This document shows positions 3-38,354 of a stretch of DNA of 64,000 nucleotides, piece by piece. The notes beneath the pieces are model-generated. The model was not told where the DNA came from and did no database searches. It worked only from the letters and a program-made list of their open reading frames with translations. A program made the position numbers and the translations under genes. Source of the DNA: Catenaria anguillulae PL171. Its lineage: Eukaryota > Blastocladiomycota > Blastocladiomycetes > Blastocladiales > Catenariaceae. The stretch is taken from contig MCFL01000044.1 in NCBI GenBank assembly GCA_002102555.1, forward strand, positions 143,643 to 207,642, in the 5' to 3' direction. The stretch's first letter is position 1, and each line of letters opens with the position of its first letter.

Positions 3-2495
3 ACTGTCGACTACGCCATCTACACTGGTGATACCAACTACCGCATCGAAGCCAGCAGCTGCACACATGTCACCAAACTCTTGGAAGACGAGAAGCTGGA
101 TTCGTGTCTGCAAGCCGACCAGCTGGCACTGCATCGAAAAGCGGGCAACACATTTATTGGGTTTCATGAGGCGCCTATTCGGTTTCTGCCCACATTCAAG
201 TTATCGACGACTGCGCCATCGATCGCGTCGGGATCCATTGGCTCAGGTGGCGGAGGCGAGCCTATAGCAGCGAGTCCGACAAAGCGGCGTGGGTCCTTTT
301 GGACTGCCAAAGTTGTATCTGCCTCACGGAGATCCTCACTATCCCCTGGCTCACCGACATCGCCGTTGCCGTCCTCTTCGGCCATGTCGGCGATTTCTGG
401 GTCGTCTTCGGGCGTGATTCTGGAAACACAGGAGCCTGTTACAAGTGGGAACATCACTGTAGAGATTCCACAGCGACCGGGAGACGTATCCACCGTCCCA
501 GCCGGGATGCCGTGTGCGCGTTCGCGTTCAGATGAATCGCTGCCTGTGCTTGCCTCGGGCGCAGCCAACGACATCACCGACTTGCTAAGCATCTGCTCCA
601 ACGAGCTCTCCGTTGCGACCTCGGCCGCGTCCATGTCCGTTGCCACCTCTGACGCGCTTTCACCAGAGTTTGCGGCCTCACAAGACTCGTCCACGGCACT
701 TCCAATAATGTCCCCGCGCCCGCGGCCAGCCGCTGGTGCAAGTGGGAAACCAAAACGAACCATGTCCAACAAGCTGCTTCCCAAACTGCGCACATCCACA
801 CCCAAGAGCCCTTTGTCCCTCGAGTCGGACTCGCCCATAGCACGAAAGTACAACCCGCAACGGATCCCGGCTTGGACCGATCGGATCTTATTCAAGGCCA
901 AGCAGGATCGCGTCAGGGCAATGGCGACGGCCATGTCCACAACAGGTACCGTGGGCACAACCACGTCCGATGCCATGAACCGAAAAGAGCCAGCAGCAGG
1001 GGATGTATTAGGAACAACTGGAGGAACAACATGCAAAGCGACATCGCCTGCGGCGGTCGTTGGTACCATGGACATCTTTACCGAATCAGGCACAAGGCTG
1101 CCATCCAACACGGAAATCTTCAAAACCTCGACGCCGTCCATCATCAACTCACCACAAACAACCACCATGTCGCTCCCACCGCCTCTCACATCTGTTGTCG
1201 CCGTACCTGTGTACACGGCCGTCCACGAGCAAACTGGGTCCGACCATGCGCCCGTGGTGGGCGTGTTTGACCTGCCATTCGACTGGGCAGCGCTCATGGC
1301 CGACATGCCCATGGGCTCGGCCGAGGCCTTGGCCCATCAAGACATTGCAGCACTCATGGACCTGGATCTGACACGGACTGCAAGCGGAGTGGCGCCCGCA
1401 AATGGTAGCGGCGGTGCAGCACTCAAAGCAAAGCTGAAAAAGACGCGATGGATCCTGTCATGGCGTGGAAGTGACAAATCGCTGGGCAAAGTGTCACCTG
1501 CATCGGATAAAGCGGTGGCTGATGAGGAAGTTTGTGTGCCATCGACGTCGTCGCCGTTGGCAGCGCCGCCAATCAACTCGGCCAAAAGACCGTCGTTTGC
1601 CGCTCCCGAGGAGCCTGTGGATGTGGACTACTTGCTCAGTTTGAACCCAAGCTTACCTCGACCGCAGCCCGATGGCGTATCTTCTCCCACGCCCGAGCCA
1701 TCAACATCAACCAATCCAGGCGCGGCTGCTGCTGCTGCTGTATCGCCAAGCACGGACAATGAATCCGGACATACGGTCCCACCTCCACTCTCTTCGTTCC
1801 GCGACCCAACGGCCATTGTCTCTGGCCCGACCACCAGCCCGCCCACCAGCTCCACCAATGTGGCCGCCGCACCCGCTCTCCCACCACTTCCAACGCTGAG
1901 CCGCGTCCCGCGCCCGCGCGCCTCCTCCACCGGCCTCCCTCAACAACCCCACAAGCTCACGTCACGTGGGCGCGCGCATGGCAAATCCAGCCGCAAAGCC
2001 TCGATTGCACTCTTGCCCGGCGGCGTTCCACACTCGCCCAGCACGCCCAAACTGCCCACAAGCACGGCACGCAAGGTCGACAGTCCCGCATCATCGCAAG
2101 CTTTGTCGCCGTCAACACCATCTATGGCGTCCACGTTGTTGAGCGGGCACACGGGCACGTCGACTGCGCCGCCGACGCGGGCCATGTCGTATGCTACGGG
2201 ACGAGGCGGCGGCGGCGGCGGCGGCGGCGACGGTGAGAGCGTTTTGAGTCAGCGGACGGCAGATGTATTGTCCATGAGCGAGATTGAGGAGGCGAGGAGA
2301 GAGGAGGGGGCAAAGGCAGGGAAAAACAAGAGCAAGAGGGGGTGGTTGAGAAGGAAAAAGAGCAAGGGTCACCAGCCGCCGCCCCAGCAGACGTTGGTAT
2401 CGCCCACACCATCCGAGAATGAGTTGACGGCTGGCGGCAAGCGTGAGGGGCGCAGAAAGGCAAGGAAAGCAGGCGATCCGTGTTCGATAATGTAG
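3..2495 (+). CDS. Inositol polyphosphate 5-phosphatase, C-terminal part (5' end outside window)
   Basis: The frame is open from base 3, so the N-terminus lies upstream. About 830 residues are visible. Conserved 5-phosphatase motifs appear in order: the GD-NYRIE motif near the start, GFHEAPIRFLPTFK, then RIPAWTDRILFK (near base 860) and SDHAPVVGVFDLPF (near base 1240). These enzymes remove the 5-phosphate of phosphoinositides or inositol phosphates at membranes. Two Ser/Thr/Pro-rich insertions, roughly 215 and 110 residues, separate the last three motifs, and a long disordered tail follows that contains a Gly run (near base 2205). The protein ends in a basic stretch and then CSIM, a CaaX prenylation signal, as in some animal 5-phosphatases such as INPP5E and INPP5A. 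The insertions are read straight through; unrecognised introns inside them cannot be excluded. The substrate is unknown. Confidence 0.85.
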   Translation, partial: TVDYAIYTGDTNYRIEASSCTHVTKLLEDEKLDSCLQADQLALHRKAGNTFIGFHEAPIRFLPTFKLSTTAPSIASGSIGSGGGGEPIAASPTKRRGSFWTAKVVSASRRSSLSPGSPTSPLPSSSAMSAISGSSSGVILETQEPVTSGNITVEIPQRPGDVSTVPAGMPCARSRSDESLPVLASGAANDITDLLSICSNELSVATSAASMSVATSDALSPEFAASQDSSTALPIMSPRPRPAAGASGKPKRTMSNKLLPKLRTSTPKSPLSLESDSPIARKYNPQRIPAWTDRILFKAKQDRVRAMATAMSTTGTVGTTTSDAMNRKEPAAGDVLGTTGGTTCKATSPAAVVGTMDIFTESGTRLPSNTEIFKTSTPSIINSPQTTTMSLPPPLTSVVAVPVYTAVHEQTGSDHAPVVGVFDLPFDWAALMADMPMGSAEALAHQDIAALMDLDLTRTASGVAPANGSGGAALKAKLKKTRWILSWRGSDKSLGKVSPASDKAVADEEVCVPSTSSPLAAPPINSAKRPSFAAPEEPVDVDYLLSLNPSLPRPQPDGVSSPTPEPSTSTNPGAAAAAAVSPSTDNESGHTVPPPLSSFRDPTAIVSGPTTSPPTSSTNVAAAPALPPLPTLSRVPRPRASSTGLPQQPHKLTSRGRAHGKSSRKASIALLPGGVPHSPSTPKLPTSTARKVDSPASSQALSPSTPSMASTLLSGHTGTSTAPPTRAMSYATGRGGGGGGGGDGESVLSQRTADVLSMSEIEEARREEGAKAGKNKSKRGWLRRKKSKGHQPPPQQTLVSPTPSENELTAGGKREGRRKARKAGDPCSIM

Positions 2496-11230: not shown

Positions 11231-11302
11231 TGGAGCTTGCGGGGTTCGAACCCGCGGCTTCTCGCATGCAAAGCGAGCACTCTACCACTGAGTTAAAGCC
11301 CC
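11231..11302 (-). tRNA. tRNA-Ala (anticodon UGC)
   Basis: The minus strand folds into a 72-nt cloverleaf. The acceptor arm GGGGCTT pairs with AAGCTCC with one G-T pair. An A-box-like TAACTCAGTGG follows, then the anticodon stem CTCGC/GCGAG with loop TTTGCAT, so anticodon TGC, and a B-box-type T-arm around GGTTCGAACC. There is no intron and no encoded CCA. The first 12 nt of the tRNA lie inside the left target-site duplication of the adjoining LINE, yet the gene is intact. The nearest run of four T downstream is about 60 nt away, which is unusually far for a Pol III terminator. Confidence 0.95.
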
Positions 11303-11307
11303 TTGAA
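11291..11307 (+). repeat. LINE target-site duplication, left copy
   Basis: The 17 bases agttaaagccccttgaa cover tRNA-Ala nucleotides 1-12 plus five bases upstream of the tRNA. The same 17 bases recur exactly at 19523-19539 beyond the element's 3' end. Confidence 0.93.
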
Positions 11308-11432
11308 AAAATTGAAAGAAGCGCCAAAATAGGCAATACTGACAATATCGCTACGAAACCCTGCGCAATCGAATCAGCGCCCCAACTTACCTACCCTGTC
11401 AAAATATCAAGTCAAACGGACGATTTTCGGCC

Positions 11433-13406
11433 ATGACCGACCCGTCCGCCACCCAAACAATGGGTGATCCGCCTCGCCCCCCGCCTGATCAACAGGCCAA
11501 AACCCCCGATATTGTCACTGCCCCCGCCCGCTCTGCCGCCCCCCGCCCCGCTCCCCTCCGCTTTGCCGCTCCGGCCGACGACGACGACAAGATGGACGAA
11601 GACGTCCCGACTCCGACCCGCCCTACCGCTAACCAACGTTTCTTTGCTTCCTGCCTCCTGGCCAACATGCCTGGTACGTCCCGCGCCGAAAAGCTGAACA
11701 CCGCTCGCTTCCAGTACCATACTGGGGCTTTCGAAAAGTCCGCTTGTAACTTTAGCATCCCTCGGGTTTTTGCTGAGGGGGTACGTCAACCGGATCTCGA
11801 ATCCATTGTGATCGAGTTTTACACTGGTGAGGGCCGTGACGACGCGGTCCAACACGCCCGCCCGCTTCATGGATCCGAGGGTGTCACCACCATCCTCGAA
11901 ATGTACACCCCGCCTACTGTTGCCCCGATCACCCAGGTCTCGGCTATTTACTTGTACGACGCCCCTGCTGGCATCGTTCCGGCTGCCATTGCTGCTCGCT
12001 TGGCGGAGAAGCTCCCGCCCACTGCTCGCGTCAAGGTGTTCGCACCAGACGTCTACGACCGCTTCTACGGGGTGTGGAGGGCCGAGATCGTCTCGCCTGA
12101 CCACGCCGCAATCTCGTCTCGCTTGCTTTGCCTTGGCGGCATCACTGTCGCCGACCACCTGCTCCGGATCGCGGGCACGTTCCACGCCGCCCGCAACTGC
12201 CGCCGCACAGACCGCGACACCATGCTCCACCTGTACGGTATCCCTGCCGGTGCCACTGCCATTCTGATTGGCAAGGCGCTTCAGAATGCTGGTCTCTCTG
12301 CGTCCGCCTGGCGCATTGAGTTGAACAAGGATGGCAAGAAATTGTCACGTGCGGTGGTCGTTTTTCCGTCTGCTGACGCTGCAGAGGCAGCCACGCATGT
12401 CAAGGTTAGGTACACTTGGCATGACCTCGATGTCGCGCTTGTGTGGGCTCCGGCCAGCACCCCTCTGTGTTTCGCCTGCCACAAAAGTGGCCACGCCGCA
12501 GCAACCTGCCCCCGCAGCCGCTCACTCCGTGCAGCTCAGCAGTCCCGCAAGACAATCCGCGATGCTCTCTCCTCTGCTCCCGCCCACACCTCAATCATTC
12601 CCATCCGCTCCCTTGCCCCCTCTCTTGTCCGCCCCGGCATGTCCTTCCGTGATGCTGCCTCCGCCTCTAACCCCGACTTCCCTGCCCTCGACTCTGCCCG
12701 TCCTGCTCCTGCCAAATCCTCACTTTCAGCGCCGCAAAACACCACTCCCTCCTCGCAAGAAATCCTTCTCCTCCACCAAAAGATTGATGACATCAGCTCC
12801 GAGGTGACCACACTCAAATCTCGCCCTGGCCCAGGCACCACGGCCCCGGCCGCGCCTGCTCTCACGCTCTCTGATGTCAAAGACCTTCTCACTGACACTC
12901 TGAAACCGGTTCTCCAGGACCTCGCGCGCTTCCAAAAGCAGCAGTTCAAGCTGATCGAGGCAGTGACTGCACTGCAAAACGAGCGGGCTCGGTTCAACCA
13001 GATGCTCGTTTCCGCGGCGCAAGAAGAAACTGTCGCACTTGCCCCCAACACCCGCGGAGCGGTGAAGCGCGCAAAGCTCAACGACTCGGCGGCGTCCTCC
13101 TCGTCCGCCACGTCAAGGGCTCCTCCGCTGTCCCAAAACCAACTGGCGGCAGTCGCACAGCTCACGGCATCCACGACCATGGAACACCAAGTTCGATTCT
13201 TGGAATCCATGCAGGCAAGCATCCAAACGAGCCTGCAAAAGACCATGCACTTCTTTGCCAGCAGCCTCGCCCAGCACATGGGCCGCGAGCTCCCAGTCCC
13301 TATCATCGAGCTGACGGCACCCGACTTTGACCCTCATCTTGTGGTTGACGCAGCTAGCGGGCCTGCCAATCACGAAGTCCCCGTCCTCCCCAACTACCAA
13401 CAATGA
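11433..13406 (+). CDS. LINE ORF1 protein with CCHC zinc knuckle
   Basis: 657 residues from the ATG at 11433. The first 70 residues are Pro/Ala-rich and disordered. A folded region (about residues 75-330) resembles the RNA-binding half of LINE ORF1 proteins. A single CCHC knuckle, CFACHKSGHAAATC (C-x2-C-x4-H-x4-C), sits near residue 347. A Ser/Pro-rich linker follows, then a helical stretch near residues 435-530 (EILLLHQKIDDISSEVTTLK) likely to form a coiled coil for multimerisation. It is expected to coat the element RNA as a ribonucleoprotein. Its TGA stop overlaps the ORF2 start codon in the sequence ATGA. Confidence 0.88.
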   Translation: MTDPSATQTMGDPPRPPPDQQAKTPDIVTAPARSAAPRPAPLRFAAPADDDDKMDEDVPTPTRPTANQRFFASCLLANMPGTSRAEKLNTARFQYHTGAFEKSACNFSIPRVFAEGVRQPDLESIVIEFYTGEGRDDAVQHARPLHGSEGVTTILEMYTPPTVAPITQVSAIYLYDAPAGIVPAAIAARLAEKLPPTARVKVFAPDVYDRFYGVWRAEIVSPDHAAISSRLLCLGGITVADHLLRIAGTFHAARNCRRTDRDTMLHLYGIPAGATAILIGKALQNAGLSASAWRIELNKDGKKLSRAVVVFPSADAAEAATHVKVRYTWHDLDVALVWAPASTPLCFACHKSGHAAATCPRSRSLRAAQQSRKTIRDALSSAPAHTSIIPIRSLAPSLVRPGMSFRDAASASNPDFPALDSARPAPAKSSLSAPQNTTPSSQEILLLHQKIDDISSEVTTLKSRPGPGTTAPAAPALTLSDVKDLLTDTLKPVLQDLARFQKQQFKLIEAVTALQNERARFNQMLVSAAQEETVALAPNTRGAVKRAKLNDSAASSSSATSRAPPLSQNQLAAVAQLTASTTMEHQVRFLESMQASIQTSLQKTMHFFASSLAQHMGRELPVPIIELTAPDFDPHLVVDAASGPANHEVPVLPNYQQ

Positions 13407-16400
13407 GTAACGACCGACAACCACCACCACCCATACCCCCGATACCCAATCCATCACCTTCCTTCCGCATCAATCTCGCCGTCGCCAACTGCAGGGGTGT
13501 ACAGAGTGCTGCTGCAAGCGGCAAACTGTTCTCGCTCCTGGATTGGATGCGCGGCGGGCTTGATGTGGACATTTCCTTCCTCAACGAAACCAAAGCCTCT
13601 CAAACCTCGCTCAAGCGTGCTACCCAGTACACTGACCTACCTTTCACCTTCTTTTCTACTGTTGATACCCTACACACAATGGGCAGCGGCGCCGCCATCG
13701 CGGTCCGTAACTCATTGTGTTGTTTTCTAGATCCTCCTCAATTCCTTGTAGGCTACGCCGTCCATCTTCCTCTTCGCCTCGCGACCGGCAGTCGATTGCA
13801 CCTTATATCCATCTACCTCTCGCCCGACAGCGGCCGGCACGTTCCCAAGTCCTACCTTCCGACTCACCTCCAATCTCGCCTGCCTGCTTCGGTTCTGCTG
13901 ACCAAGGCATTGTCCATCTTCATCTCGGACGTGTGTACTCGCGCTCGTGATGCTGGCGACCATGTCGTGGTTGGTGGTGACTGGAACTGCAGTGACGGAT
14001 CACCCCGTGCAGCCCTGGTCCAGAAACTCGAGACTCGTCACCACCTTGTTGATGTTGCTGAGGCGTTTGGCGACATGCAACCTACCCACGACCGCAACCG
14101 ACTTGACCGGATTCTGATTGATGAAGGTCTTGCTCACTATTTCAATGGGTACGCTGTCACGTGGCCCGCCGACGTGCCCGACAACCCGCTCATGGGTCTC
14201 GACCATGCAATCATCTCGGCGCGCACGAGTTTGGGTACCCTTCTCGACCGCGAGCTGATTCGCAAGATGGAGTCGTGCGCAAAGGCGGCGCAGCGGCAGG
14301 TCCTGGATTTGCCCGAGTGCACGCCGAGGATGTGGGAAGCGTATCAGGGCGAGTGTGCGCGGGCAGTGACCGAGGCAGACGTGCTCGACATTATTGCGCG
14401 AGGTACACCAGAGTCGCTGGACGCAGCTCAGGTTGCTTGGCACAAGGTGTTGATCGATTCGGCCAAGGCCAAGCTCAAGCACCGCAAGGCTGGCGGCAAG
14501 ACCCCGTTCACGGAGCCGCGCCGCAACACGCCCAACTCGCCCGAGGGTTATCATATCCTCAAGCTCGACAAATGGCGAAAGCAAGGGTACAAGCTGCCAG
14601 GCCCGCAAGGTACGTTTTCCCGTCTCACTGAGCTTGGCATTGACCCGCCCGGCTCGACCGAGTCTGAGTGCGCAAAGTACTACGCGCGCGCTCGGCAGGC
14701 GCTATCCACGATTGTCCTGGTTCGTGACCAAGCAAAGCTCTCGGAAAAGATCGCCGCGGCCGTGAAAAGCCGCTTCGAGGCTGCTCCGCACGCCATTGCT
14801 GACCTTGTTCGCCGGATCTTTGACCGCACTCGACCTGTCTCGGCCGTTGACTCGGTCCGGGATGGCGACCGTCTGTCGTTCGACCCGGACGACATCATCA
14901 CCCAGATTGCTGTGCTCATGTCTGTCAGCTTCAAGGGTGAAGTGTTTGACCCCGAGGGGTTCGATGCCTATTGGACTGAAGCGTGGTCGCCCAAGTCGCA
15001 CGACAAGATTCCGCCCGAGGCGTGGGCGGGTGTCATGGTCGCTATCACGGTCGAGGAACTGCGGGCGGCGCTGAGCTCGGCGGGCGTCGACAAGGCACCT
15101 GGCGTGAGTCAAATCACGATGCGCATGATTCGCGAATCGGGCCCAGAGTGTCTTGAGGTGCTTGCCGCTTTGTGCACTGCGTGCTTGCATCAGAAACGGG
15201 TGCCGGAGGCGTGGAAAGAGGGCTCGATCTACCTGTTGCCCAAGTCCGAGGAGGGATTTGTTGGGTTGACGGAGGGGATGCGGCCAATTACGTTGCTCGA
15301 GTGTGCCAGCAAGCTTCTTATGAAGGTGCTGTTGACTCGTATATACAAGGTCATGCTGTCATATCCAGTGTTGGAGGGTGCCTGTCACTCCACCTTGCCG
15401 GGGACTGACGCATCGACCCCGATCTCGATCCTGCACGCTGCCTTTGAACAGCAGTGGGCGCAAGGGTACGTTCCGGAACACGCTGCCGGCAAGGGCCAGC
15501 TCTTTGCGTTTTTCGAGGACAAGTCCAAGGCCTTTGATTCAGTTCCGCACGAGGCACTGCGGCTTGCTCTCCGGCGTATCAACATGCCCGAATCGTTTGT
15601 GTCGTTCTATTGCGATGGGTACTTGGCAGGCCGGGTTGCGCGAGTGATCACGTCGTACGGACTTTCTGATCCCGTGCCGATTGAGCGAGGTGTGCCGCAA
15701 GGCGCCGTTGAATCGCCGCTGATGTGGGCCATTTTCTACGATGTGCTCTTGTCGGCGGTGAACACTGACCCCTCCATTCTCGGAGTTACGATCACGGCCC
15801 AAACCAACCTCGTCTCTGTAGGTGACCCGCGCAAGCAAAAGGACACGGGTAAGCTCCTCGGCCGGATCCGCCTGGCCGGCATGGCGTTTGTTGACGACGC
15901 CGTCTTCCTCGCCACCACGCGCGCCGACATGGACCGAATATTGCGGCGTGTTGAGCAGTTCAACGACATGACCAACGTCCGATCCAACCCAAAGAAGGGG
16001 GCGGTTTGGATTTTGCACGGGGCGGACAAGGACGAGAGCGACCCGTTTACCATTCACGGTCAAGACATTCCGCGGGTGAATGACATGACCTCGTTTCGGT
16101 ATTTGGGCATCTGGGTGGACCACCGTTTCCGCGGTACCAGCGCTCGCAAGTCCATGTTGGATGTGTTTCGGCGGTGCATCCCGCTGCTGAGACGCAAGGC
16201 AGTGACGGGTAAGATGGCAGTGTGGCTTCTTAACGTCGTTGTTTTCCCTAGCGCCCTGTACCGGACGCTTGGTTTTGTCCCGACGCCCACAACGCTCAAC
16301 TTGTGCAATGCCATGGCCACGGGTCTCGTCAAGCGCAAGCTTGGCTTGCCCGTCAACCACCCCACCGCCTCTCTGCACCACAAGTCAACAGTCGGCCTGC

Positions 16401-19267
16401 TCTCCTTTCCCGACCTTGTCCTTGCTGCCCGCCTCACCGACATTCTCACCGCGCTCAACGATGACCACCCGCGCAGTGTTGCCATCAAAGCGTCCCTGTG
16501 CTTGCTACAGCACAACCTTGCCCTCCCTTTCTGCCCTCTCTCACACCCGCTGCCTGTCACAGTTGCTCGCAGTCGCTGCTGGTTTGGCAATCTCCTTCCT
16601 CTGATGCATGCCCGCCGCCTCTCTGTCTCGGACTCGACGGGTTCGTTTTTCCTTCCCTTTGCGCCCGGTGTGCCCTCCTCCCCTACTACGCATGACCCTT
16701 GGGGCGGCGCCTCTGTTCCTCTTGTGTCGATTCTTCCCATAGACACATACTCGGCTGCCGTCAAGTACTTTCGAAACCACAAGCTCAAGTACATGCACGA
16801 CCTTCTCGACAAGGTGGGCGTTCCTGCCGACTATGCCGAGTTTGGTCATGCCCGCGTGCACATGGCGATCAGTACCAAACTTGCCGTGCACACTGCCGGC
16901 GGCGTTGAGAAGGATGTGGCTGCGTTCCTCGTTGATGCTCTCTTTCGCTTACCCTCGTCTTTTTCGTCTCACTCGTTCCCTGCCCCATACACCCCGACCG
17001 ATCACTCCCTTTGTCCTTCCTTTTTGCTTAAATCCCCAACCCTTGCCTCGCCCGATCTTTTCTCTCTCCCGGGCCTTCCCCCATTTGACCTAGAGTCTCT
17101 CGACGTTGACGTCGTTCTCGCATTTTGTTCTCGTGTTTTTCTCCTCTCGCCGCCCACAGTCGACGCCTGTGACGTTGTCTCGTGCCCTTTTGACCTTGTG
17201 CCCGATTTTCTTTCCACCCTTGACCGCCCGCGCCCGCTCATTGCGTACACGGACGGCTCGCTTTTCGATCCTCCCAGCCCCCTCTTTTCAATTGATACCC
17301 CTCTTGACAAGTCTGCTCGTGCGTCTGGGTCGGCGGCCTACTTTCCCGAGCTCGGCTTTTCCTGCCGTGTCCGACTCCCTCCAGGCGCACATTCGTCCAC
17401 GCGCGCTGAGGTGTGGGCCATCCTCCTTGCAATTGCATCGGTACCCATCTCGGCTCACGTGCACATTTTCACCGACTCGAAGGCAGCTGTCGCCCAGTTC
17501 CGCCGTCAGGTCTCGTCCCCCGCATTTCCGTCTCCCCCTCTTCCGCGCTGTCGTGTCCGGTCTCCGTTTTGCCAAGAATGGGCGGCCGTCCGCTTCGTCA
17601 TTGCTCACCGCAGGCTCTCTGTCAGTGTCAGCTGGGTCAAGGGTCACTCTGACGACACAGCTGACCCGCACCGGGTCCACAATGACATGGCCGATGCGCT
17701 TGCAAAGTCGGCGGCGACTGATCTTTCTTCATCCTTCATTTCTCCGCACCTTCTTGCCTCATCCGACCTTCCCTTTTCGCTCGCTTTCGGCTCGTGCAAA
17801 AGCGGCACCGACATGCTCGTTCGCTCCACGGCCGAGCCTGTCGTTGTCGTCAATGGGCAGCGCCACCGCGTTCGCCACATTCAACCACGCGTCCCTGCCG
17901 CCCGTTTGCGTCCTGACTTGACCTCCCTTTCCCGTGTGCAATCCCAAGAACTACTTACTCCCACCCATTTTGTTCTCCCCCCTCCCCATCCAGGGTCCGA
18001 TTCCTCACCAGACTTTCTCTCAACAAACCCGCCTCACCCATCGCTCACGGCCCGTATCGTCAGCCACGACCCCCGCCGTTTCATTCTCTTCCACTCCCAA
18101 GTCCGCGCCCACTACCAGCTCCGCGATGCCGCTCCTCACATCGACTGGTCAGTTGTTCACCCCGCCGCGTCCGAATGCGCCTTGCACGACGGTCGCTGCG
18201 CGGGTGATCTCTACTCTTCTACTGCGTCCAACACTGTGCTCTCGCGGCGCATCAAGGTTCGCACCAACAGCCTTCCCACCCGACTCCTCAACTTTACCCG
18301 CCGGCCGGATAAGTACCACGAAGGTCCCTGGTGTCCGCGCTGCCCGCTGGCCGACGTAGCTTACTTTGACGACTCTGTGCACTGGCTCGAGTGCCCTGCA
18401 GGAGAGGAAGACCGCGCGGCGGCACAGGCCCTTGCAGTCGGTGCAGTCGCGTCGCTCTTGTCCACGTTCACGACCAAGCCGATCCGTCGCATGGCGCTTG
18501 CGCACCGGCTGGTTGGCCTCTGGCTCAAAGACACCTCCTCGCTCCGCCTCGCTGCTGGCTGCCTCGTCACGACCCAAGTGATCGACCTACTCCGCCCGAT
18601 CAGCACGCGCCTCAAGTCCCCTGTTGCGCGCGTCGCCGGCCTCCTCCTCTCGCCCGTCTCTTACATTCTGTTCGAGCACGTGTGGGAGAGGCACACCAAG
18701 GCCATCTACTCCTTTTACCCCGATCCAAACTCGCCCGAGAGCAAGGAAGCGTTGCGGCTTGCGTGGGAAGCACATGTTGCCATGCTCCCGCCCCAAGACC
18801 CGCCGCGGCTGGCGGCGACAGACGCGGTGGTGCCTCGCAAGCGGCACTCCAAGTACGACGGATACGTGCCAGTCTACCACCCCACGCCCACGTCCCGGTT
18901 TCGCCTGCCCCCAGACATGCCCATGGCCGACCCGCCCCCGTTTGTTGCCCCCGCCCCGCCTCTTCCACCACCGGCCCAGTTGCGAAAGCAACCCAAGCGG
19001 CTTCCCTACAAGATGGTTGCGGCGCTGCCGTCTTCGCTCCCGGCCCCTCTCGATCCTCCTCTGCCCCTTCCGTCCATCTTTTGCCTGGCGTGTTTGACGC
19101 CATACTCCCACCACCTCGACACCCATCACCCGATTCCTCACCGCTGGCGCGGCGTCGCCATTTCCAAGTTCCTTTGCCCTGTTGGTCGCCACGACCATAC
19201 CTGTCTTGCTGCCGACGATGCCGCCTCACGGTGGCTTCTGTCTGGTATTGCTCCTCCCTTTGCGTAG
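13403..19267 (+). CDS. LINE ORF2 polyprotein: endonuclease, reverse transcriptase, RNase H
   Basis: 1954 residues in one frame. The N-terminal AP-type endonuclease shows NETK (near residue 61), GGDWNCS (near 191), LDRILID (near 234) and LDHAIIS (near 265). The reverse transcriptase shows EAWKEGSIYLLPK, DKSKAFDSVPHEAL (near 702), RGVPQGAVESPL and the catalytic FVDDAVFLA (near 828). RNase H follows with YTDGS (near 1281), the RAE glutamate, FTDSKAAV and HNDMADALAK (near 1426), so all acidic residues are present. A C-terminal WCPRCP...HWLEC zinc motif lies near residue 1643. The protein nicks the target and primes reverse transcription from it. Translation probably relies on termination-reinitiation at the ATGA overlap. 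Confidence 0.93.
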   Translation: MSNDRQPPPPIPPIPNPSPSFRINLAVANCRGVQSAAASGKLFSLLDWMRGGLDVDISFLNETKASQTSLKRATQYTDLPFTFFSTVDTLHTMGSGAAIAVRNSLCCFLDPPQFLVGYAVHLPLRLATGSRLHLISIYLSPDSGRHVPKSYLPTHLQSRLPASVLLTKALSIFISDVCTRARDAGDHVVVGGDWNCSDGSPRAALVQKLETRHHLVDVAEAFGDMQPTHDRNRLDRILIDEGLAHYFNGYAVTWPADVPDNPLMGLDHAIISARTSLGTLLDRELIRKMESCAKAAQRQVLDLPECTPRMWEAYQGECARAVTEADVLDIIARGTPESLDAAQVAWHKVLIDSAKAKLKHRKAGGKTPFTEPRRNTPNSPEGYHILKLDKWRKQGYKLPGPQGTFSRLTELGIDPPGSTESECAKYYARARQALSTIVLVRDQAKLSEKIAAAVKSRFEAAPHAIADLVRRIFDRTRPVSAVDSVRDGDRLSFDPDDIITQIAVLMSVSFKGEVFDPEGFDAYWTEAWSPKSHDKIPPEAWAGVMVAITVEELRAALSSAGVDKAPGVSQITMRMIRESGPECLEVLAALCTACLHQKRVPEAWKEGSIYLLPKSEEGFVGLTEGMRPITLLECASKLLMKVLLTRIYKVMLSYPVLEGACHSTLPGTDASTPISILHAAFEQQWAQGYVPEHAAGKGQLFAFFEDKSKAFDSVPHEALRLALRRINMPESFVSFYCDGYLAGRVARVITSYGLSDPVPIERGVPQGAVESPLMWAIFYDVLLSAVNTDPSILGVTITAQTNLVSVGDPRKQKDTGKLLGRIRLAGMAFVDDAVFLATTRADMDRILRRVEQFNDMTNVRSNPKKGAVWILHGADKDESDPFTIHGQDIPRVNDMTSFRYLGIWVDHRFRGTSARKSMLDVFRRCIPLLRRKAVTGKMAVWLLNVVVFPSALYRTLGFVPTPTTLNLCNAMATGLVKRKLGLPVNHPTASLHHKSTVGLLSFPDLVLAARLTDILTALNDDHPRSVAIKASLCLLQHNLALPFCPLSHPLPVTVARSRCWFGNLLPLMHARRLSVSDSTGSFFLPFAPGVPSSPTTHDPWGGASVPLVSILPIDTYSAAVKYFRNHKLKYMHDLLDKVGVPADYAEFGHARVHMAISTKLAVHTAGGVEKDVAAFLVDALFRLPSSFSSHSFPAPYTPTDHSLCPSFLLKSPTLASPDLFSLPGLPPFDLESLDVDVVLAFCSRVFLLSPPTVDACDVVSCPFDLVPDFLSTLDRPRPLIAYTDGSLFDPPSPLFSIDTPLDKSARASGSAAYFPELGFSCRVRLPPGAHSSTRAEVWAILLAIASVPISAHVHIFTDSKAAVAQFRRQVSSPAFPSPPLPRCRVRSPFCQEWAAVRFVIAHRRLSVSVSWVKGHSDDTADPHRVHNDMADALAKSAATDLSSSFISPHLLASSDLPFSLAFGSCKSGTDMLVRSTAEPVVVVNGQRHRVRHIQPRVPAARLRPDLTSLSRVQSQELLTPTHFVLPPPHPGSDSSPDFLSTNPPHPSLTARIVSHDPRRFILFHSQVRAHYQLRDAAPHIDWSVVHPAASECALHDGRCAGDLYSSTASNTVLSRRIKVRTNSLPTRLLNFTRRPDKYHEGPWCPRCPLADVAYFDDSVHWLECPAGEEDRAAAQALAVGAVASLLSTFTTKPIRRMALAHRLVGLWLKDTSSLRLAAGCLVTTQVIDLLRPISTRLKSPVARVAGLLLSPVSYILFEHVWERHTKAIYSFYPDPNSPESKEALRLAWEAHVAMLPPQDPPRLAATDAVVPRKRHSKYDGYVPVYHPTPTSRFRLPPDMPMADPPPFVAPAPPLPPPAQLRKQPKRLPYKMVAALPSSLPAPLDPPLPLPSIFCLACLTPYSHHLDTHHPIPHRWRGVAISKFLCPVGRHDHTCLAADDAASRWLLSGIAPPFA

Positions 19268-19522
19268 TCGTCAGCTGACACTGCGCTCAAGGCACGCGGC
19301 CGCGTGATTCCAAGGTCGCGTGCACTCTGGTGTATTGGGTTGGTGCCTTTCCTTGCAATGCCCAACAACATGCCTTCCGCGCGATTGGTCAGCACACCAC
19401 TTTTGGCTCGATCTGAACCTCCGTATTGGCGTTGGGTGCATACAGTGTTTGGTCCTGATTTGTTGTTGTAATTTTTTCTCGCACGTGAGTCTGAATTCCT
19501 CAATTTCAATACAATACCGATA

Positions 19523-19539
19523 AGTTAAAGCCCCTTGAA
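19523..19539 (+). repeat. LINE target-site duplication, right copy
   Basis: An exact 17-base match to 11291-11307. It leaves a 12-nt relic of the tRNA 5' end on the far side of the element, followed by what was originally the sequence upstream of the tRNA gene. Confidence 0.93.
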
Positions 19540-19933
19540 CACCCAATTCCGCCATGTCTTATGGCCCGGCGGCCTTGATGAAGGTCGAAAATGGGCAAGA
19601 TGACTGCACTTGCCCCTGCTTGCCCCTGCTGGTTGTCGCGCTGGTGCAACTCTTTGGGCACCTGAATTGAGGTTTCCAATGATTTGGACAAGCGAGGGAG
19701 CGTGTGAGATACTGGTTTGCTTTGGCGCCCCAAGACCCCCAAGACACGGATGGGAGCCAGTGGAGCAGCGATGTGGACGGAAATGGTAAGAATCAATAAT
19801 TGAATACATAGAGAGACACTCTGTCGAAGCGAAATCAAGCGCGGGACTGAGGAGAACACAAAAAAAAAGAGCCGGAAAGAGTACAGTTTGGTGGAAAGCA
19901 CACACTCGAAAGAATCACACATCCACACCGAAC
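19540..19933. other. Intergenic, original upstream flank of tRNA-Ala
   Basis: No gene is seen. The repeated phrase tgcccctgct occurs near 19610, and an A-run near 19860. Before the LINE inserted, this would have been the 5' flank of the tRNA gene and the 3' flank of SMC6. Confidence 0.5.
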
Positions 19934-22900
19934 TTACACATTGTTTCGCTCTGGTGCGTCCAAGAACACAATGGAAATGTCTGGATCGTCATTCTCTTGC
20001 AAGTTACTAGTGAAGCGAAACAGAGGGACATGTGAGTGGACGGTGAAATGTGCAGGCGAGAAACAAGGTAGGTGCGCAACGTACGAAATGCTCAATGGTG
20101 TGATAAACATAAACTGCGAGTCTCCCTTCTTTGCGGCATCAATGAGAAGCTCCATGGTGACCCGACTGGAGAAAAGAAAACATGTCAGCCGACATCCTCA
20201 AGTGAATCGAGCAGCCGGAAAAAAAAAGAGTAAACGCACCGATTGACCTCATCCATGTAGACATCAAACTCGTCAAGAGCCCGAATTGGTGTCGGCATGG
20301 CATCCCACAAGGCAAGCAGCAAGCACACGGTACTGAACGACTTTTCTCCTCCGGAATACGTGCGCATGGATCGGTCGGCATTAGAATCCAACTTGTTTGC
20401 CGTAATGTGCAACAAACCCTTGTCATGGTCAAACTTGAGCTCGCCCACAAACCCGCGCTTGGCCATGCGCATCCTGAATGCTGCACCCGCCTTGACCGAC
20501 AAGTGGTTGACGAGATGGGAAAAGCGGGCTGCGCGATCCGACACAGTCTCGCGCAGCTTGTTGACGAGCAAGTTCAAATCATGGTGCTCGGTCTTTGCCT
20601 GCTCGTGCTTTGCCTTTGCCTCTTCGTACAGCCGTTCGGCCATGTCATAGTCAAGGCCGCGGTTGCGCGCAGTGATTTGCTCGAGAACACGGACCCCGTG
20701 CTCGCGCGCGTGGTCAATCTCCTCGCGCGTGCGAATAGTGCTGGGCCGCACAACCGACTCGGCCAAGAGCGTTGCAAGTGCTTGATCGAGAATGTTTTGC
20801 TGTTCTTGGCGCTGGTCGTCAACAGCAGTGCGCATCTGTTCGTGCTTTTGTACTGTCGCCACCCAATGCTCGACACGCCCCTGCAGCACTCGCACAGCCC
20901 GCTCGGCCTCCCGAATGCGCTGTTGACGCTGCGCCTGGTAGTTCTTTTGCTGGTCGCGCATGTTACGCAGCTCGCGCACGCGGGCCTCCATGGCTTCCAC
21001 CTCGGCCGTTGCCGCATCGCTGGCCGCATGTGCTGCCGGAAGTTGCGCCGCGTACTGGGCAAGCTGCTGCTCGAGCTCGTCAATCTGCATCATGATGGAC
21101 GCCACCTCGACGGGCTCTTCGGCACGCAGCGACTCTTCGAGCTTGGTTATGTCGCGTTGCAGCGGACGCACGCTACGATCGGCCACGGCACGCTCGTGGT
21201 TGATTTGCTGCATGTTGCGACCCAAGTTGTCGAGCTCAGCGCGTGCTTGAGCGAGCTCGTGTGAAACTTGTGCGTGGACTTGTTTCTTTTCGGTAATCGA
21301 CTGGCGCAGTTGGTCCATGTTGACCGACCCAGAGTGCGCGCCCGTGATCCCAAAGGGGCACATGCGGTCGTTGCGCCAAATAGGCCCTGCTTGCATTGCG
21401 AGCCCGCCATGTTTATTGCCGACACGATACCCGTTGGGCAAAAATACACCGACCGAGTTGGGTGGCCACCCGCTGCGCGTGACTTGCTCGGCGTCTTTGC
21501 GGTTTTCAATCAAGATGCGCTGCTCAATCTGCTGGTTGACGCACAGCACGCGCTGTACGACCGGGTGGGTGATTTCGAGCGTGTCGAGCGACGTAAGAAA
21601 CCGCGAGTCGGGCAAGTATCCGCGCAAGTCGAGTCGCGCGCGCATGTCGGTGATGATGATGCGCGAATCGCGCTGGTGGAATTGCGCAAATAATTGCTGC
21701 AACACGGCCCGGTCCTCCTTACAACTGACGACGAAATCCTTCATGCCCATGCCAATGTTGGCACGCAAGTAGTTCAACCACCGGTCGTGGTACTCGGGCT
21801 TGGGCTTGACGTAGCGCCCCAGCGGGCCCAACGGCTGCTCGCCGCGCCACTGCGTCCGCCCGATCGCATCAATCAACTGGGCCATGTTGGGGCCCCACAG
21901 GTTCAACTTGTTGCTTGCCGCTTGCTGCATGTTGACCAACAAGCTCTCAGCCTGGCGAATCTCGCCACCAATGGCCTGATCCTTGCGCACGAGCTCGTCC
22001 ACTTTGGCTACCAAGTCTGGCCGCTGCCGCTGCAGCTCCTCGGCCTGTGCATCCAACTCGACAATCCGAGCGCCCAACGCGTCCAGCTGGTGCTTGAGCT
22101 GTGTCAAGTGTGCTTGCTTGCGCGCGCGCTCCTCTTGTCCCTCGCCCGACTCGCGCCGCTCCACCTCGGCCAAAGTGGCCCTTGCCTCTTGCAACTTGTG
22201 GCGCGTGCGTTCTTGCTCGGCCTCGATCGTCTTGATTTCGCGTACGGCGTGCGTGCGCTGCGTGCGCAACGGGCCCAATGCCTGCTGTGCCTGGTCAAGG
22301 GCCGCAGCGTCAAACCCGACATTGGCATCTGCACGTGCTTGCTCGAGCTGGTCCACGGCCGCTTGCACTTGGACTTGTTCGTTGGCCAACCGTTCCTGCG
22401 CCTCGGCCACTAGGTCGGCCTCTTGAGCGACCCTGGCCGTGAGCTGATCCAGGGTTTGTTCCATTTGCGCAACCAAGCACCATTCGCCCTCCGTCTCCAA
22501 CTTGCGCAAATCTTCTTCAAGCGCGCGAGCGTGCTTGAACTCGGCAAACACGCGCTTGGCCTCTGCGCGCTTGTCCTTGAGCGTATCGATCGAGTCGTTG
22601 ATGAGCAAGAGCTTGGCGCACAGGGCCTTGAGCTCGTCGCCGATTTGCGCATACGTTACGTTGGTTTGGGTAATGTCTGCACCCTGCGCGAAAAACTTGT
22701 ACAGGTCCGAGTCCTTGACGTTCATGAGAAACTCCTTTGCTGCGTCTTGAGTGAGGAACGTGAGCGAGTTGTCGGTCATGATGTTGAAGTGGTCCGTGAT
22801 GGCCGAAAGCTCAGACCGGCGTTTGGTGACTTCGACATTGTTAGCGGCGCGGATCGAGTAGGTAGATGCGCCCGATTGGCCAATGCGTCGGGTGATGATG

Positions 22901-23510
22901 ATGGTGTGTCCGTACACGTCGGGCTTGTAGGCATCGTGCCCTTCGTTGGCCAGCTTGATGGTGATGGAACAGAACGATTTGCCGTCTTGGATCAGGCCCG
23001 TGATGCGTTGGCCACGGCCAGTGTTTGTGGCGCGGGCACCCAGGCCGATCATGAGTGAAGCGAGGACCGCGGATTTGCCTGATCCATCTGTAATTTGGCC
23101 GAGTCGAGCTGTGAGTGATGCATTTGGAGTCTCAAGGGACCAATTCAGAAGAAAGCCGTACTGGCGCCGTTCAAAAAGTTGATTTTTGGGATAAACTGGA
23201 CCGTCAAGTTGTCGTGGGTGAGGAAATTGACCAAGTTTGCCTCGCGAATGATGCCCGCGAGCTGCGAGCCGGCGCCCGTGTGCTCGGTGCCCTGTTGTTG
23301 AGTGGCCGACGAGAGGGCGGCGCGCTGGTTTTTGCGGACGCGGCGGGTGGTTGTAGCTGGAGTGCCGTTGCCATTGGCCGAGGCAGAAGAAGAGGATTGT
23401 GAGGGAGTTGGCGGAGGCAGAGACTGGCGCAGGTCGTGGCCATCGTCGTCTTGGGTGCGCCGGCGTCGGCGGCCAGAGGGGGTGGCTGCTCCGCCCGGGG
23501 AGGTGGTCAT
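19934..23510 (-). CDS. SMC6: SMC6, structural maintenance of chromosomes protein 6
   Basis: Four exons: 23162-23510, 20240-23087, 20085-20165 and 19934-20006, with introns of 74, 74 and 78 nt, encoding about 1116 residues. After a basic, Gln/Ser-rich N-terminus comes VNFLTHDNL and the Walker A GANGSGKSA (residues 115-123), whose Asn codon is created by splicing of intron 1. LTQDAAKEFL and the FF-QGADI segment are SMC6-type. Two long coiled coils flank a hinge near bases 21600-21850. The C-terminal ATPase lobe has YSGGEKSFST and Walker B ALDEFDVYMD, and ends in NNV. With SMC5 and Nse proteins it forms a DNA-repair and chromosome-segregation complex. It is divergent from YIF1, with 293 bp between starts. 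Confidence 0.95.
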
Positions 23511-36641: not shown

Positions 36642-38354
36642 TCACATCAACATAGCCATGGCCGGATCATCGCCCTCCTTATGCTCGGCCCACTCGAATC
36701 CCAGCTTGCTCAAAAACCCTTGCACCACTGCATCTTCCTCGTCGTCGTGGCCTTGAAGGTCACCAACGTTCGTCAACCCAACCAATACCCGCGACATGTC
36801 CCCGCCGCGATACCGGTAATGGAACAAGGTACAGTTGAGTGCGCTCTCGCTCATGCACTTGAGAAACATGGCGAGAGACCCTGGCCGTTCGGGAAACACA
36901 AATGAAAAGAAGCGCTCACCACGGCTCGGGTGCGGGCCTTTGCCCGCACACAAGTAGCGAGCGTGATGCTTTGCCAATTCGTTTTGTGTCAAGTCTACGG
37001 CCGACCACTCGCCGGTGCCATCGGCCACATGATTAAAGGACGCCACCACCTCATTGACCTCTGGTTGGCCGCGCGAGATTTCAAACCCAATAAACACTTT
37101 GGCCGTTGCTGTGTCGCCAAACCGGTACACGAGCTCGGTCACGTTCCGGGGATGAATCTTGTCGTACAGCCGAATAAACGATCCGGGCACCTCGGGAATC
37201 CTTGCACACACGAGCGCCTCGCGGCCGTCGCCAATGCGTGTGCGGTCCGCAATGAATCCGAGCCGGTCAAAGCTCGCGTTGGCACCCGACAGCACACACG
37301 CAAACACGCCGCCGGCAAGCTGCGGAAACCGCGCCAAGTACTTTCGGCACCCCGCCACTGACAAGGCGCCTGCGGGCTCGAGAATGGACCGTGTCTCTTC
37401 AAACACGTCGCGAATCGCCGCACATACTTCGTCGGTGGTGACCGTGATCATGTCGTCGACGAGCTGGCTCGCGAGCCGATACGTCTCATCGCCCACGACG
37501 CGTACCGCGGATCCATCGGAAAACAAGCCCACTTGAGCTTGAGCCATAACCTTGCCGTGTGCAATCGACTCTGCCATGGCGCGCGAGTCGACCGTGTTGA
37601 CGCCCACAATGCGCACGTGTGGGCGCACACGCTTGACGTACGCGGCAATGCCCGCCAGCAATCCGCCGCCCCCGCAGCACACAAAGATGGCATCGAGCCT
37701 GTCCTGCTTGACCTGATGCAAGATTTCCATGCCAACGGTGGCTTGGCCCGCAATCACCTTTGGGTCGTCAAATGGCGGAATGATGACTGCGCCCTGGTCC
37801 TTTGCCAGCTGCAGCATGTGTTGCTTGCACTCATCAAAGTCGGATCCGGATAGTACAACATGCCCACCGAGCCGCCGCACATTGTCGACCTTGATCTTTG
37901 GAGCAAATACGGGCATGCAAATGGTGGCCCGGATGCCGAGCTTTTGCGCAGCGAGGGCAACGCCCTGAGCGTGGTTGCCTGCAGACACGGCAATCACGCC
38001 GCGCGCGCGCTCTTCGGGCGTCAGGTTGAACAACTTGTTGAAGGCGCCGCGCAGCTTGAAGGAGAAGACGGGCTGCAAGTCTTCGCGCTTGAGCAGTATG
38101 GTCGATGCGAGGCGTGCAGACAGGCGCGGGGCAGGAACCAGTGGCGACTCAATGGCGACATCGTAGACGCGCGCATTGAGGGTTTCGAGCAGGTAGTCTG
38201 TGCCGTGGGCCGGGTGGGTGGTGATGGCGGTCACTTGATCGCGGGTCAGGTGCTGCGCGTTGGCACAGGCAGCCAGGAGCGGCGATGGCCAGGGTAGCGG
38301 GAAGGGTGTTGATGAGGACATGGTGCTAGCCTGCTGACAAGTGCTGTTGTGCAT
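36642..38354 (-). CDS. ILV1: Threonine dehydratase (threonine ammonia-lyase), biosynthetic
   Basis: 570 residues with no intron. This PLP enzyme converts threonine to 2-oxobutanoate, the first step of isoleucine synthesis. The PLP lysine is Lys100 in SFKLRGAFNK, the glycine loop is CCGGGGLLAG, and SAGNHAQGVAL and the KREDLQPV region are all conserved. The C-terminal 200 residues carry two ACT-like regulatory modules (EVPGSFIRLYDKI, then FPERPGSLAMFLKCM), so feedback inhibition by isoleucine is expected. There is a second in-frame ATG at residue 12. The first 30 residues are hydroxylated and poor in acids, compatible with a mitochondrial leader but not diagnostic. The length fits fungal ILV1. 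Confidence 0.96.
   Translation of the reverse strand: MHNSTCQQASTMSSSTPFPLPWPSPLLAACANAQHLTRDQVTAITTHPAHGTDYLLETLNARVYDVAIESPLVPAPRLSARLASTILLKREDLQPVFSFKLRGAFNKLFNLTPEERARGVIAVSAGNHAQGVALAAQKLGIRATICMPVFAPKIKVDNVRRLGGHVVLSGSDFDECKQHMLQLAKDQGAVIIPPFDDPKVIAGQATVGMEILHQVKQDRLDAIFVCCGGGGLLAGIAAYVKRVRPHVRIVGVNTVDSRAMAESIAHGKVMAQAQVGLFSDGSAVRVVGDETYRLASQLVDDMITVTTDEVCAAIRDVFEETRSILEPAGALSVAGCRKYLARFPQLAGGVFACVLSGANASFDRLGFIADRTRIGDGREALVCARIPEVPGSFIRLYDKIHPRNVTELVYRFGDTATAKVFIGFEISRGQPEVNEVVASFNHVADGTGEWSAVDLTQNELAKHHARYLCAGKGPHPSRGERFFSFVFPERPGSLAMFLKCMSESALNCTLFHYRYRGGDMSRVLVGLTNVGDLQGHDDEEDAVVQGFLSKLGFEWAEHKEGDDPAMAMLM

What the first reader, a model, noticed from the sequence alone, without database searches (positions are those of the whole stretch)
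11231..19539. Full-length LINE inserted into the 5' end of a tRNA-Ala gene, with the tRNA regenerated by the target-site duplication
The 17-bp duplication agttaaagccccttgaa covers tRNA nucleotides 1-12 plus five upstream bases. The insertion therefore cut inside the tRNA gene yet left it complete, while replacing its upstream flank with an 8.2-kb element in head-to-head orientation. Targeting of tRNA-gene surroundings is known for Dictyostelium TRE elements, which lie some distance from the gene. A LINE that lands in the tRNA 5' end and restores it through its own duplication would be a neat safe-site strategy. A single insertion cannot distinguish targeting from chance.
Basis: partly seen in the sequence, partly recalled or inferred. 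Interest (0 to 1): 0.82.

Follow-up and report, generated by a model that had tools for sequence, protein, structure and literature searches.

The report
LINE cuts tRNA genes, restores them
A jumping gene repeatedly inserts at one exact spot inside tRNA genes of this organism, and the short stretch copied at each insertion rebuilds the tRNA gene, so the same spot can be used again and elements pile up beside it.

Summary
An 8215-bp LINE (11308-19522) with open ORF1 and ORF2 lies between perfect 17-bp copies of agttaaagccccttgaa and leaves tRNA-Ala(TGC) (11231-11302, minus) complete. The window site has an empty allele (C187). Two alleles of one tRNA-Cys carry different LINE copies at the same nucleotide. 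A second LINE subfamily and a tRNA-headed SINE use the same site. Since each insertion rebuilds the target, elements stack: LINE, SINE, LINE, SINE beside one tRNA-Ala. Inferred mechanism: the APE-type endonuclease nicks the tRNA sense strand in box A (TAGCT|CAGTGG); the second cut falls 3-6 bp upstream of the gene. Closest in behaviour: Dictyostelium purpureum NLTR-A (2-6 bp upstream of tRNA genes), TRE5/TRE3, tRNA-specific restriction-endonuclease LINEs, Dada transposons. My searches found no report of an APE-type LINE that cuts box A and restores the gene: a new variant of a known kind. 11 of 28 LINE tails stayed unread; host not identified.

The parts
11231..11302 (-). tRNA-Ala(TGC), the targeted gene, complete after insertion
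   Evidence: ARAGORN; Rfam tRNA 70.6 bits, equal to the empty allele C187; the 72 nt are identical in both
11291..11307 (.). left copy of the 17-bp target-site duplication: complement of tRNA nt 12-1 plus 5 upstream bases
11308..11331 (+). 24-nt copy-specific 5' extra between the duplication and the shared element start GGCAATA
   Evidence: comparison of 12 copies
11332..11432 (+). LINE 5' untranslated region; the query 11330-11480 matches 25 places in the genome
11433..13406 (+). ORF1, 657 aa, one CCHC knuckle (CFACHKSGHAAATC at residue 346), no Pfam family
13403..19267 (+). ORF2, 1954 aa: AP-type endonuclease (28-244), reverse transcriptase (616-904), RNase H (1308-1438), C-terminal CPRC...HWLEC motif (1644)
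   Evidence: Pfam; EN model pLDDT 82.5 matching LINE-1 EN and AP endonucleases; motif by script
19268..19522 (+). 3' untranslated region ending TTCAATACAATACCGATA, no poly(A)
19523..19539 (.). right copy of the 17-bp target-site duplication, a 12-nt tRNA stump plus 5 bases
19540..21061 (.). original upstream flank of the tRNA gene, displaced 8.2 kb; contiguous with the tRNA in the empty allele C187 (97.9% identity from 19523 on)

Best explanation
A young APE-type LINE family inserts specifically inside tRNA genes; a second LINE subfamily and a tRNA-headed SINE use the same target. Its endonuclease nicks the tRNA sense strand between nt 12 and 13, in box A (TAGCT|CAGTGG); the freed 3' end primes reverse transcription of the element RNA; the other strand is cut 15-18 bp away, 3-6 bp upstream of the gene. 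The duplication therefore holds tRNA nt 1-12, so the gene next to the element's 5' end stays complete and only a 12-nt stump marks the element's 3' end. The rebuilt site is a fresh target, so elements accumulate head-to-tail, the newest presumably nearest the tRNA. Shown: position, TSD, orientation, empty allele, repeated use, stacks. Inferred: which strand is nicked first, direct box-A recognition, order of arrival, and that the SINE is moved by this LINE's enzymes.
For: 9 of 10 copies with matched TSDs start at tRNA nt 12, TSD 15-18 bp. Of 31 distinct tail junctions in held sequence (40 pattern rows, less 7 double hits and 2 chance hits), 25 run into the nt 12-1 complement of tRNA-Ala (17), -Cys (4) or -Lys (4). 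Of the 28 LINE-A tails, 17 were read: 10 Ala, 3 Cys, 2 compatible, 2 not. Of 25 LINE 5' ends, 9 lie within 60 bp of the 5' end of an opposite-strand tRNA gene, 10 within 60 bp of another element's 3' tail, 6 neither. Empty allele C187 has one 17-mer with both flanks contiguous (95.5% and 97.7% identity over 1.5 kb on each side) and is still syntenic about 19 kb on. By coordinates two more alleles lack the insertion: C13:238768 for C418, C124:302826 for C15. C128 and C279 (flanks 98.3% and 99.8% identical over 2.2 and 0.6 kb) carry LINEs of different subfamilies in the same tRNA-Cys. Stack at C404 with identical AGTTAAAGCCCCTTGTT separators. ORF2 has APE, RT and RNase H; its EN model has the LINE-1 EN/APE fold. 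The six occupied tRNA-Ala genes in the Rfam list score 70.6 bits, as C187 does.
Against: C223: a long copy with a clean 17-bp TSD (AGAGAGGAGAAAGAAGA) and no tRNA in the ~2.8 kb held on either side. C13:518 kb: the 3' junction does not fit box A; it lies in what I read as a tRNA 5' half cut at about nt 33, but Rfam did not report that half; 5' side unread. One SINE tail in C404 runs into AGTTTTTT. C252 has different sequence at its two ends and no tRNA beside it. Four of the 6 unplaced 5' ends are copies in C418/C13. 11 of 28 LINE-A tails are unread. The occupied tRNA-Lys of C431 scores 58.2 bits against 69.7 for C15 and C124 and its 5' end is one base shorter, so not every occupied gene is unscathed. 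C128/C279 could be one insertion later altered by gene conversion.
Confidence: 0.93

Rival explanations
1. Chance insertion into one tRNA gene, no targeting.
For: An off-target copy exists (C223).
Against: 9 of 10 matched TSDs start at the same tRNA nucleotide, in genes with distinct flanks.
Confidence: 0.01
2. Targeting is by the Pol III machinery (TFIIIC/TFIIIB) bound at the gene, as for TRE5-A, and the box-A sequence only sets the final nick. This is compatible with the best explanation's geometry.
For: Different tRNA types are hit at the same nucleotide. The 8-mer CTGAGYTA occurs 3 times in the window, which scales to roughly 1900 in 41 Mb (crude, one of the 3 is the tRNA itself), far more than the occupied sites. 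TRE5-A needs the B box and its ORF1 interacts with TFIIIB subunits (PMC5391098, PMC5911963, passages).
Against: Exact-nucleotide precision, and exceptions that also begin with AG (C223 AGAGAGG, C13 AGTCTCG), suggest that the endonuclease reads DNA; the protein-guided retrotransposons in the passages of PMC5911963 land in windows outside the gene.
Confidence: 0.4
3. The tRNA+LINE cassette spread by segmental duplication, not by repeated insertion.
For: Some loci share flanks (allele pairs; C224/C357 99.3% over 1.2 kb); three near-identical 273-bp tail units in C357 look like tandem duplication.
Against: Different bases follow the stump (TTGAA, GCGAA, TTGTT, AAAATT, TGTTAA, TTA), different truncation and subfamilies, three tRNA types, empty alleles.
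Confidence: 0.03
4. Insertions are random but only those that restore a gene survive selection.
For: Restoration makes these insertions harmless to the tRNA coding sequence.
Against: Selection could hardly concentrate survivors on one nucleotide of a few tRNA genes when many non-coding positions should be harmless too; copies about 98% identical already show the pattern.
Confidence: 0.02

Closest known systems
Dictyostelium purpureum NLTR-A (PMC5006619: abstract, passages, section 9 read)
   Same: Non-LTR retrotransposon with RNase H after the RT, found 2-6 bp upstream of the first mature tRNA nucleotide; here 3-6 bp.
   Different: 'target site duplication' and 'TSD' occur 0 times in that main text, and section 9 mentions no cut inside the gene, SINE partner or stack. 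Sequence kinship could not be tested. (The review PMC5911963 lists it as L1; PMC5006619 could not place it.)
TRE5-A / TRE3 of Dictyostelium discoideum (PMC5391098, PMC5911963: passages)
   Same: APE-type LINEs at tRNA genes; a new TRE5-A can form a tandem with a resident element at one tRNA gene.
   Different: Listed as L1, 40-54 bp upstream or 40-150 bp downstream, outside the gene; here the cut is inside box A, and RNase H is present.
NeSL-1_TV, LIN15_SM, LIN25_SM (PMC4640811: passages)
   Same: LINE families specific for tRNA-Pro, tRNA-Arg and tRNA-Glu genes.
   Different: Treated there as relatives of NeSL, a restriction-like-endonuclease clade; here APE-type. Position in the gene and restoration were not stated in the passages seen.
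Dada DNA transposons, including Perkinsus families (PMC3706591, PMC8869645: passages)
   Same: Insert in box A at tRNA nt 8-13; putative TSD TAGCTC for three Perkinsus families: the same few bases.
   Different: DDE transposase and 6-7 bp TSD; [quoted passage not shown]
Dewa of zebrafish (PMC3706591: passage)
   Same: Target-specific non-LTR element at tRNA clusters.
   Different: Described as inserting in the spacer of tRNA-Leu.
R1- and Tx1-clade site-specific LINEs (PMC4640811: passage)
   Same: APE-type endonuclease and specific targets.
   Different: Clade membership of this element was not testable. That paper lists tRNA genes among the targets of site-specific LINEs in general, without naming an APE-type family that cuts box A in the passages seen.

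Membership tests
APE-type LINE (non-LTR retrotransposon) | AP-type endonuclease domain with catalytic residues | tested here: met
   Exo_endo_phos over Pfam cut-off; N29, E62, D193, N195, D235, D267, H268 invariant in 8 sequences (that these are the catalytic ones is recalled); EN fold
APE-type LINE (non-LTR retrotransposon) | reverse transcriptase | tested here: met
   RVT_1 1.7e-16; matches LINE-1 and R2 proteins in the PDB
APE-type LINE (non-LTR retrotransposon) | target-site duplication, 5'-truncated copies, no long terminal repeats | tested here: met
   TSDs; C418 starts at element base 2609; no terminal repeat beyond the TSD region in the window copy
TRE5 / TRE3 | position 40-54 bp upstream or 40-150 bp downstream of the tRNA | tested here: not met
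   3-6 bp upstream, cut at nt 12/13
TRE5 / TRE3 | L1-clade reverse transcriptase phylogeny | not testable with these tools
   no named reference elements held; RNase H present
NLTR-A | 2-6 bp upstream of the mature tRNA, RNase H after RT | tested here: met
   definition from PMC5006619 section 9
NLTR-A | sequence kinship to Dp_NLTR-A | not testable with these tools
   its sequence was not to hand; none of the 15 hits bears such a name
NeSL/LIN tRNA-specific LINEs | restriction-like endonuclease | tested here: not met
   APE domain instead; no such Pfam domain among the 3 found in ORF2
Dada | DDE transposase, 6-7 bp TSD | tested here: not met
   RT protein, TSD 15-18 bp
R1 / Tad / I clades | RT/RNase H phylogenetic placement | not testable with these tools
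   nearest relatives (36% and 34% identity) carry no names
tRNA-derived SINE (partner element) | tRNA-like head, unrelated body | tested here: inconclusive
   Rfam tRNA 23.1 bits, below the cut-off of 29, E 0.02

The most novel reading that the evidence does not exclude
The tRNA box A is a self-renewing docking site: every insertion rebuilds its own target, so LINEs and SINEs pile up beside one tRNA in order of arrival. Copies start their RNA in or upstream of the restored tRNA end, so new copies carry a short piece of the previous target between the new duplication and the element (5 of 12 extras hold 8 or more bases of a tRNA nt 12-1 complement; 2000 shuffles: mean 0.07, maximum 2; one of the 5, C413, could be a local duplication). 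The genome would thus hold a readable itinerary of hops from tRNA to tRNA, and a whole SINE could be carried along (C252).
Probability: 0.4. Interest if true: 0.78.

Novelty: new variant of a known kind. Interest (0 to 1): 0.64.

Why it matters
The best-studied tRNA-targeting retroelements avoid harm by landing near the gene. This one cuts a conserved promoter element inside the gene and avoids harm by geometry: the stagger between its two cuts is longer than the distance from the cut to the gene's start. It explains how a cut inside an essential gene can be a safe site, makes the site reusable, and allows a direct test of whether an APE endonuclease reads box A or is guided by Pol III factors. 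A precisely addressed, gene-sparing LINE could also be of interest as an insertion tool.

Tried and rejected
Chance insertion and segmental spread were considered and rejected on the TSD and flank table. tRNA-His as the site in C13 was my first reading and was dropped: the intact tRNA-His nearby has a different sequence. That the half at the C13 junction is tRNA-like (Gln-like) rests on my own reading and recall; Rfam at E up to 0.1 did not report it. A tRNA or other Rfam family at C223 was sought and not found. PDB sequence search with the EN domain alone gave nothing at E up to 1. The profile search for named relatives gave 7 proteins, unnamed or generically named, so the clade stays open.

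Literature: 10 searches ran. One search returned 0 papers; one search returned 5 bacterial papers; one search listed 25 of 74, one search listed 15 of 66; one search listed 8, of which 6 were tRNA-targeting element papers already listed before and 2 off-topic. Passages only were seen of PMC8869645, PMC4640811, PMC5391098, PMC5014426, PMC5911963, PMC3706591 and PMC6875170; of PMC5006619 the abstract, passages and section 9. Kojima and Fujiwara 2004 was seen only as a citation. An earlier count said 11 copies with both junctions; the right number is 10.

Dropped before counts: 9 of 40 rows (7 SINE tails also hit by the LINE-A pattern; C128:19008 and C279:29883, degenerate hits not at an element end). 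In one search, 4 of 14 copies gave no TSD: three were entered without a tail partner (C224, C199, C357:201.7 kb), C252 had unlike ends. The 14 are the copies whose 5' side was in held sequence; ORF2 places with unread 5' sides (C13:510 kb, C21, C112, C357:174-189 kb) are not among them. The 31 junctions are not all separate events: they include tandem units in C357 and allele pairs. The held loci were fetched by ORF2 similarity or by the 17-mer; C418 came up in both, C187 only by the 17-mer. In one search the limits of the 5' extras and the five tRNA ends compared were set by me.
Full report
What is in the window. The window is contig C379:143643-207642 of an unnamed 41.07-Mb assembly of 457 contigs, apparently eukaryotic. 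ARAGORN finds a single tRNA gene, tRNA-Ala(TGC), at 11231-11302 on the minus strand. The 17-mer AGTTAAAGCCCCTTGAA stands at 11291-11307 and again at 19523-19539. Its first 12 bases are the complement of tRNA nt 12-1. Between the copies lies an 8215-bp element pointing away from the tRNA, with ORF1 (657 aa, one CCHC knuckle) and ORF2 (1954 aa) open and overlapping by ATGA. ORF2 carries an AP-type endonuclease, a reverse transcriptase and RNase H above Pfam cut-offs. A model of the endonuclease (pLDDT 82.5) matches AP endonucleases and LINE-1 endonuclease (best E 1.4e-11; TM by target length up to 0.70 for LINE-1 EN variants in the 50 rows shown). This is an APE-type LINE.

Genome-wide test. ORF2 gave 38 matches (24 of 465 candidates scored, so a lower bound). 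For 14 copies whose 5' side was held I compared flanks. Ten gave a matched duplication: C379 17 bp, C418 18, C413 17, C404 17, C128 18, C279 16, C167 18, C15 15, C431 16, C223 17; the last base or two can be ambiguous where element and target agree. Nine of these ten begin with the nt 12-1 complement of a tRNA: Ala AGTTAAAGCCCC, Cys AGCTATAACCCC, Lys AGCTAGGGGGGC. Where the tRNA is directly beside the element (8 of the 9) the left flank ends CTACCACTG or CTACCGACTG, the rest of box A; in C431 a SINE lies between the LINE and the tRNA. The exception is C223, in a GA-rich place with no tRNA in the ~2.8 kb held on each side. C418 is the striking case: a LINE starting at element base 2609, at another tRNA-Ala gene, with the very same 17-mer.

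All element ends. A tail-pattern scan of the held sequence gave 40 rows, 31 after removing 7 double hits and 2 chance hits. Twenty-five of the 31 run straight into the Ala (17), Cys (4) or Lys (4) stump. Three run into AGCTACAAAGGC (C21), AGCTAAGCCGGC and AGCCAAGCCGGC (C252), compatible with other tRNAs; three do not fit (C13:518 kb, C223, one SINE in C404). Seen from the genome list of LINE-A tails (28), 17 were read: 10 Ala, 3 Cys, 2 compatible, 2 not; 11 are unread. By coordinates, the first part of the element matches 25 places: 9 within 60 bp of the 5' end of an opposite-strand tRNA gene, 10 within 60 bp of another element's tail, 6 neither. Exact tRNA-Ala 5' ends (nt 1-18) number 11. LINE or SINE sequence stands directly upstream at C224, C379, C404, C413, C418 (read) and C443 (by coordinates), probably also at C357:179.9 kb, where a tail lies 150 bp away. 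C187 is empty by reading and C13:238768 by coordinates; C69 and C70 show no LINE head or near-full SINE. Of 15 near-intact tRNA-Cys genes (17 matches in all), 3 have a LINE head beside them.

Empty and occupied alleles. C187 holds the same locus without the element: tRNA, one AGTTAAAGCCCCTTGAA, then CACCCAATTCCGCC exactly as on the far side of the window's element, 95.5% and 97.7% identical over 1.5 kb on the two sides, and still in register about 19 kb further on, 93%. Coordinates give two more alleles without the insertion. C13:238768 pairs with C418 (flank 94-97%); a degenerate tRNA-Cys upstream lies 218 bp from the tRNA-Ala in C13 and about 250 bp from the empty-site position in C418. C124:302826 pairs with C15 (91%), has no LINE head, and its distance to the next shared tRNA is 8.9 kb shorter. 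C128 and C279 are a pair, and both carry a LINE in the same tRNA-Cys: flanks 98.3% identical over 2.2 kb and 99.8% over 0.6 kb. The C128 element matches C413 at 98.6% over full length, the C279 element matches the window copy at 98.5% over full length, and between the two about 730 bp of ORF1 does not align and the 5' extras differ. Two insertions into the same nucleotide are the simplest reading; gene conversion is not excluded.

Stacks. Because the duplication rebuilds nt 1-12, the tRNA end next to the element is a fresh target. At C404 one tRNA-Ala is followed by LINE, SINE, a truncated copy of the second LINE subfamily and another SINE; the first three element ends are each followed by AGTTAAAGCCCCTTGTT. 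C224, C199, C357 and C431 show similar stacks, C112 by coordinates. The SINE (about 450 bp; 41 matches: 18 long, one short 94% fragment, 22 at 73-77% over its first ~200 bases) has a weak tRNA-like head (23.1 bits, below the Rfam cut-off) and a tail (CACTACAATACATTACC) resembling the LINE tails (TTCAATACAATACC, TTCAATACAATCATCATC). That the LINE moves it is inferred.

How it works. Inferred from anatomy and from the established target-primed reverse transcription of LINEs: the endonuclease nicks the tRNA sense strand after nt 12, inside box A (TAGCT|CAGTGG; box A starts at +8, PMC5391098). The 3' end at nt 12 primes synthesis on the element RNA. The other strand is cut 15-18 bp away, 3-6 bp beyond the gene's first base. 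The stagger exceeds the 12 bases cut off, so the gene is rebuilt. The six occupied tRNA-Ala genes in the Rfam list score 70.6 bits, as C187 does; against this, the occupied tRNA-Lys of C431 scores 58.2 against 69.7 for C15 and C124 and is one base shorter at its 5' end. A read-through RNA would end in the same 12-nt stump and could pair with the nicked strand; this is a suggestion only.

5' extras. Twelve copies have 12-29 bases between the duplication and the common start GGC(A/C)A or GCCA. Five contain at least 8 bases of a tRNA nt 12-1 complement; in three (C167, C224, C252) it is all 12 bases, and in C128, C167 and C252 it belongs to another tRNA type than the local target (2000 shuffles: mean 0.07, maximum 2). 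C413's piece ends like its own target and could be a local duplication; seven of the twelve show no such piece of 8 bases. The simplest reading is that the RNA began at or before the source copy's own restored target. In C252 the order AGCCAAGCCGGCTTGA - SINE - Cys stump - LINE - AGCTAAGCCGGCTTGA suggests that a SINE and LINE moved as one transcript; recombination is the rival there.

Comparison. TRE5 and TRE3 land outside the gene (PMC5911963, passages). D. purpureum NLTR-A, with RNase H, lies 2-6 bp upstream of the mature tRNA (PMC5006619, section 9), the very footprint seen here; its duplications are not discussed in that text, so it may work the same way. NeSL-1_TV and planarian LIN elements are tRNA-gene-specific but of the restriction-endonuclease lineage (PMC4640811, passages). 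Dada DNA transposons use the same box-A bases (PMC3706591, PMC8869645, passages). PMC4640811 and PMC8869645 list tRNA genes among the targets of site-specific LINEs in general. None of the passages I read describes restoration of the tRNA by the element's own duplication, and the ten searches brought up no such title or abstract opening among the papers they listed. Subscription literature and Repbase were not searched.

Limits. The host is not identified and the clade not placed. Box-A recognition by the protein itself is not shown.

Noticed in passing
L041:858-1305 (C404:8857-9304): tRNA-headed SINE of about 450 bp that uses the same box-A site; 22 more places match only its first ~200 bases at 73-77%, perhaps a second SINE family.
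   Followed up: partly
C187/C379, C13/C418, C124/C15, C128/C279, probably C21/C112: The assembly holds both alleles of several loci as separate contigs, so insertion polymorphism can be read from one genome. C21/C112 is judged from element and tRNA coordinates only.
   Followed up: partly
C357:205300-205480: A tRNA-Ala, still called by ARAGORN, whose box A is lost: LINE ORF2 sequence is fused to about tRNA nt 17; a deletion joining two stacks, or an assembly fault.
   Followed up: no
C357:188376-189214: Near-identical LINE 3' ends repeated in tandem at 273-bp spacing, each followed by AGTTAAAGCCCCCTTGTG, probably duplication through the repeated stump.
   Followed up: no
C252:1384-10211: Composite SINE - Cys stump - LINE flanked by AGCCAAGCCGGCTTGA and AGCTAAGCCGGCTTGA; no tRNA found beside it.
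   Followed up: partly
C13:518477-518600: Off-position copy: its 3' end joins what I read as a tRNA 5' half cut at about nt 33, not reported by Rfam; the 5' side was not read.
   Followed up: partly
C431:11911-11984: Occupied tRNA-Lys with one base fewer at its 5' end than the stumps beside the elements and a lower Rfam score, 58.2 against 69.7 bits for C15.
   Followed up: no
L053:3322-3416 (C15:42821-42915): A ~90-base sequence near the tRNA-Lys recurs at about 30 places, including C178, C341 and C436 with their repeated tRNA genes; ARAGORN calls tRNA-Ser there.
   Followed up: no
window 20185-23052 (-), 36642-38354 (-), 81-2495 (+): Neighbouring host ORFs: SMC_N match, threonine dehydratase (PALP + Thr_dehydrat_C), and a partial Exo_endo_phos2 match.
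   Followed up: no
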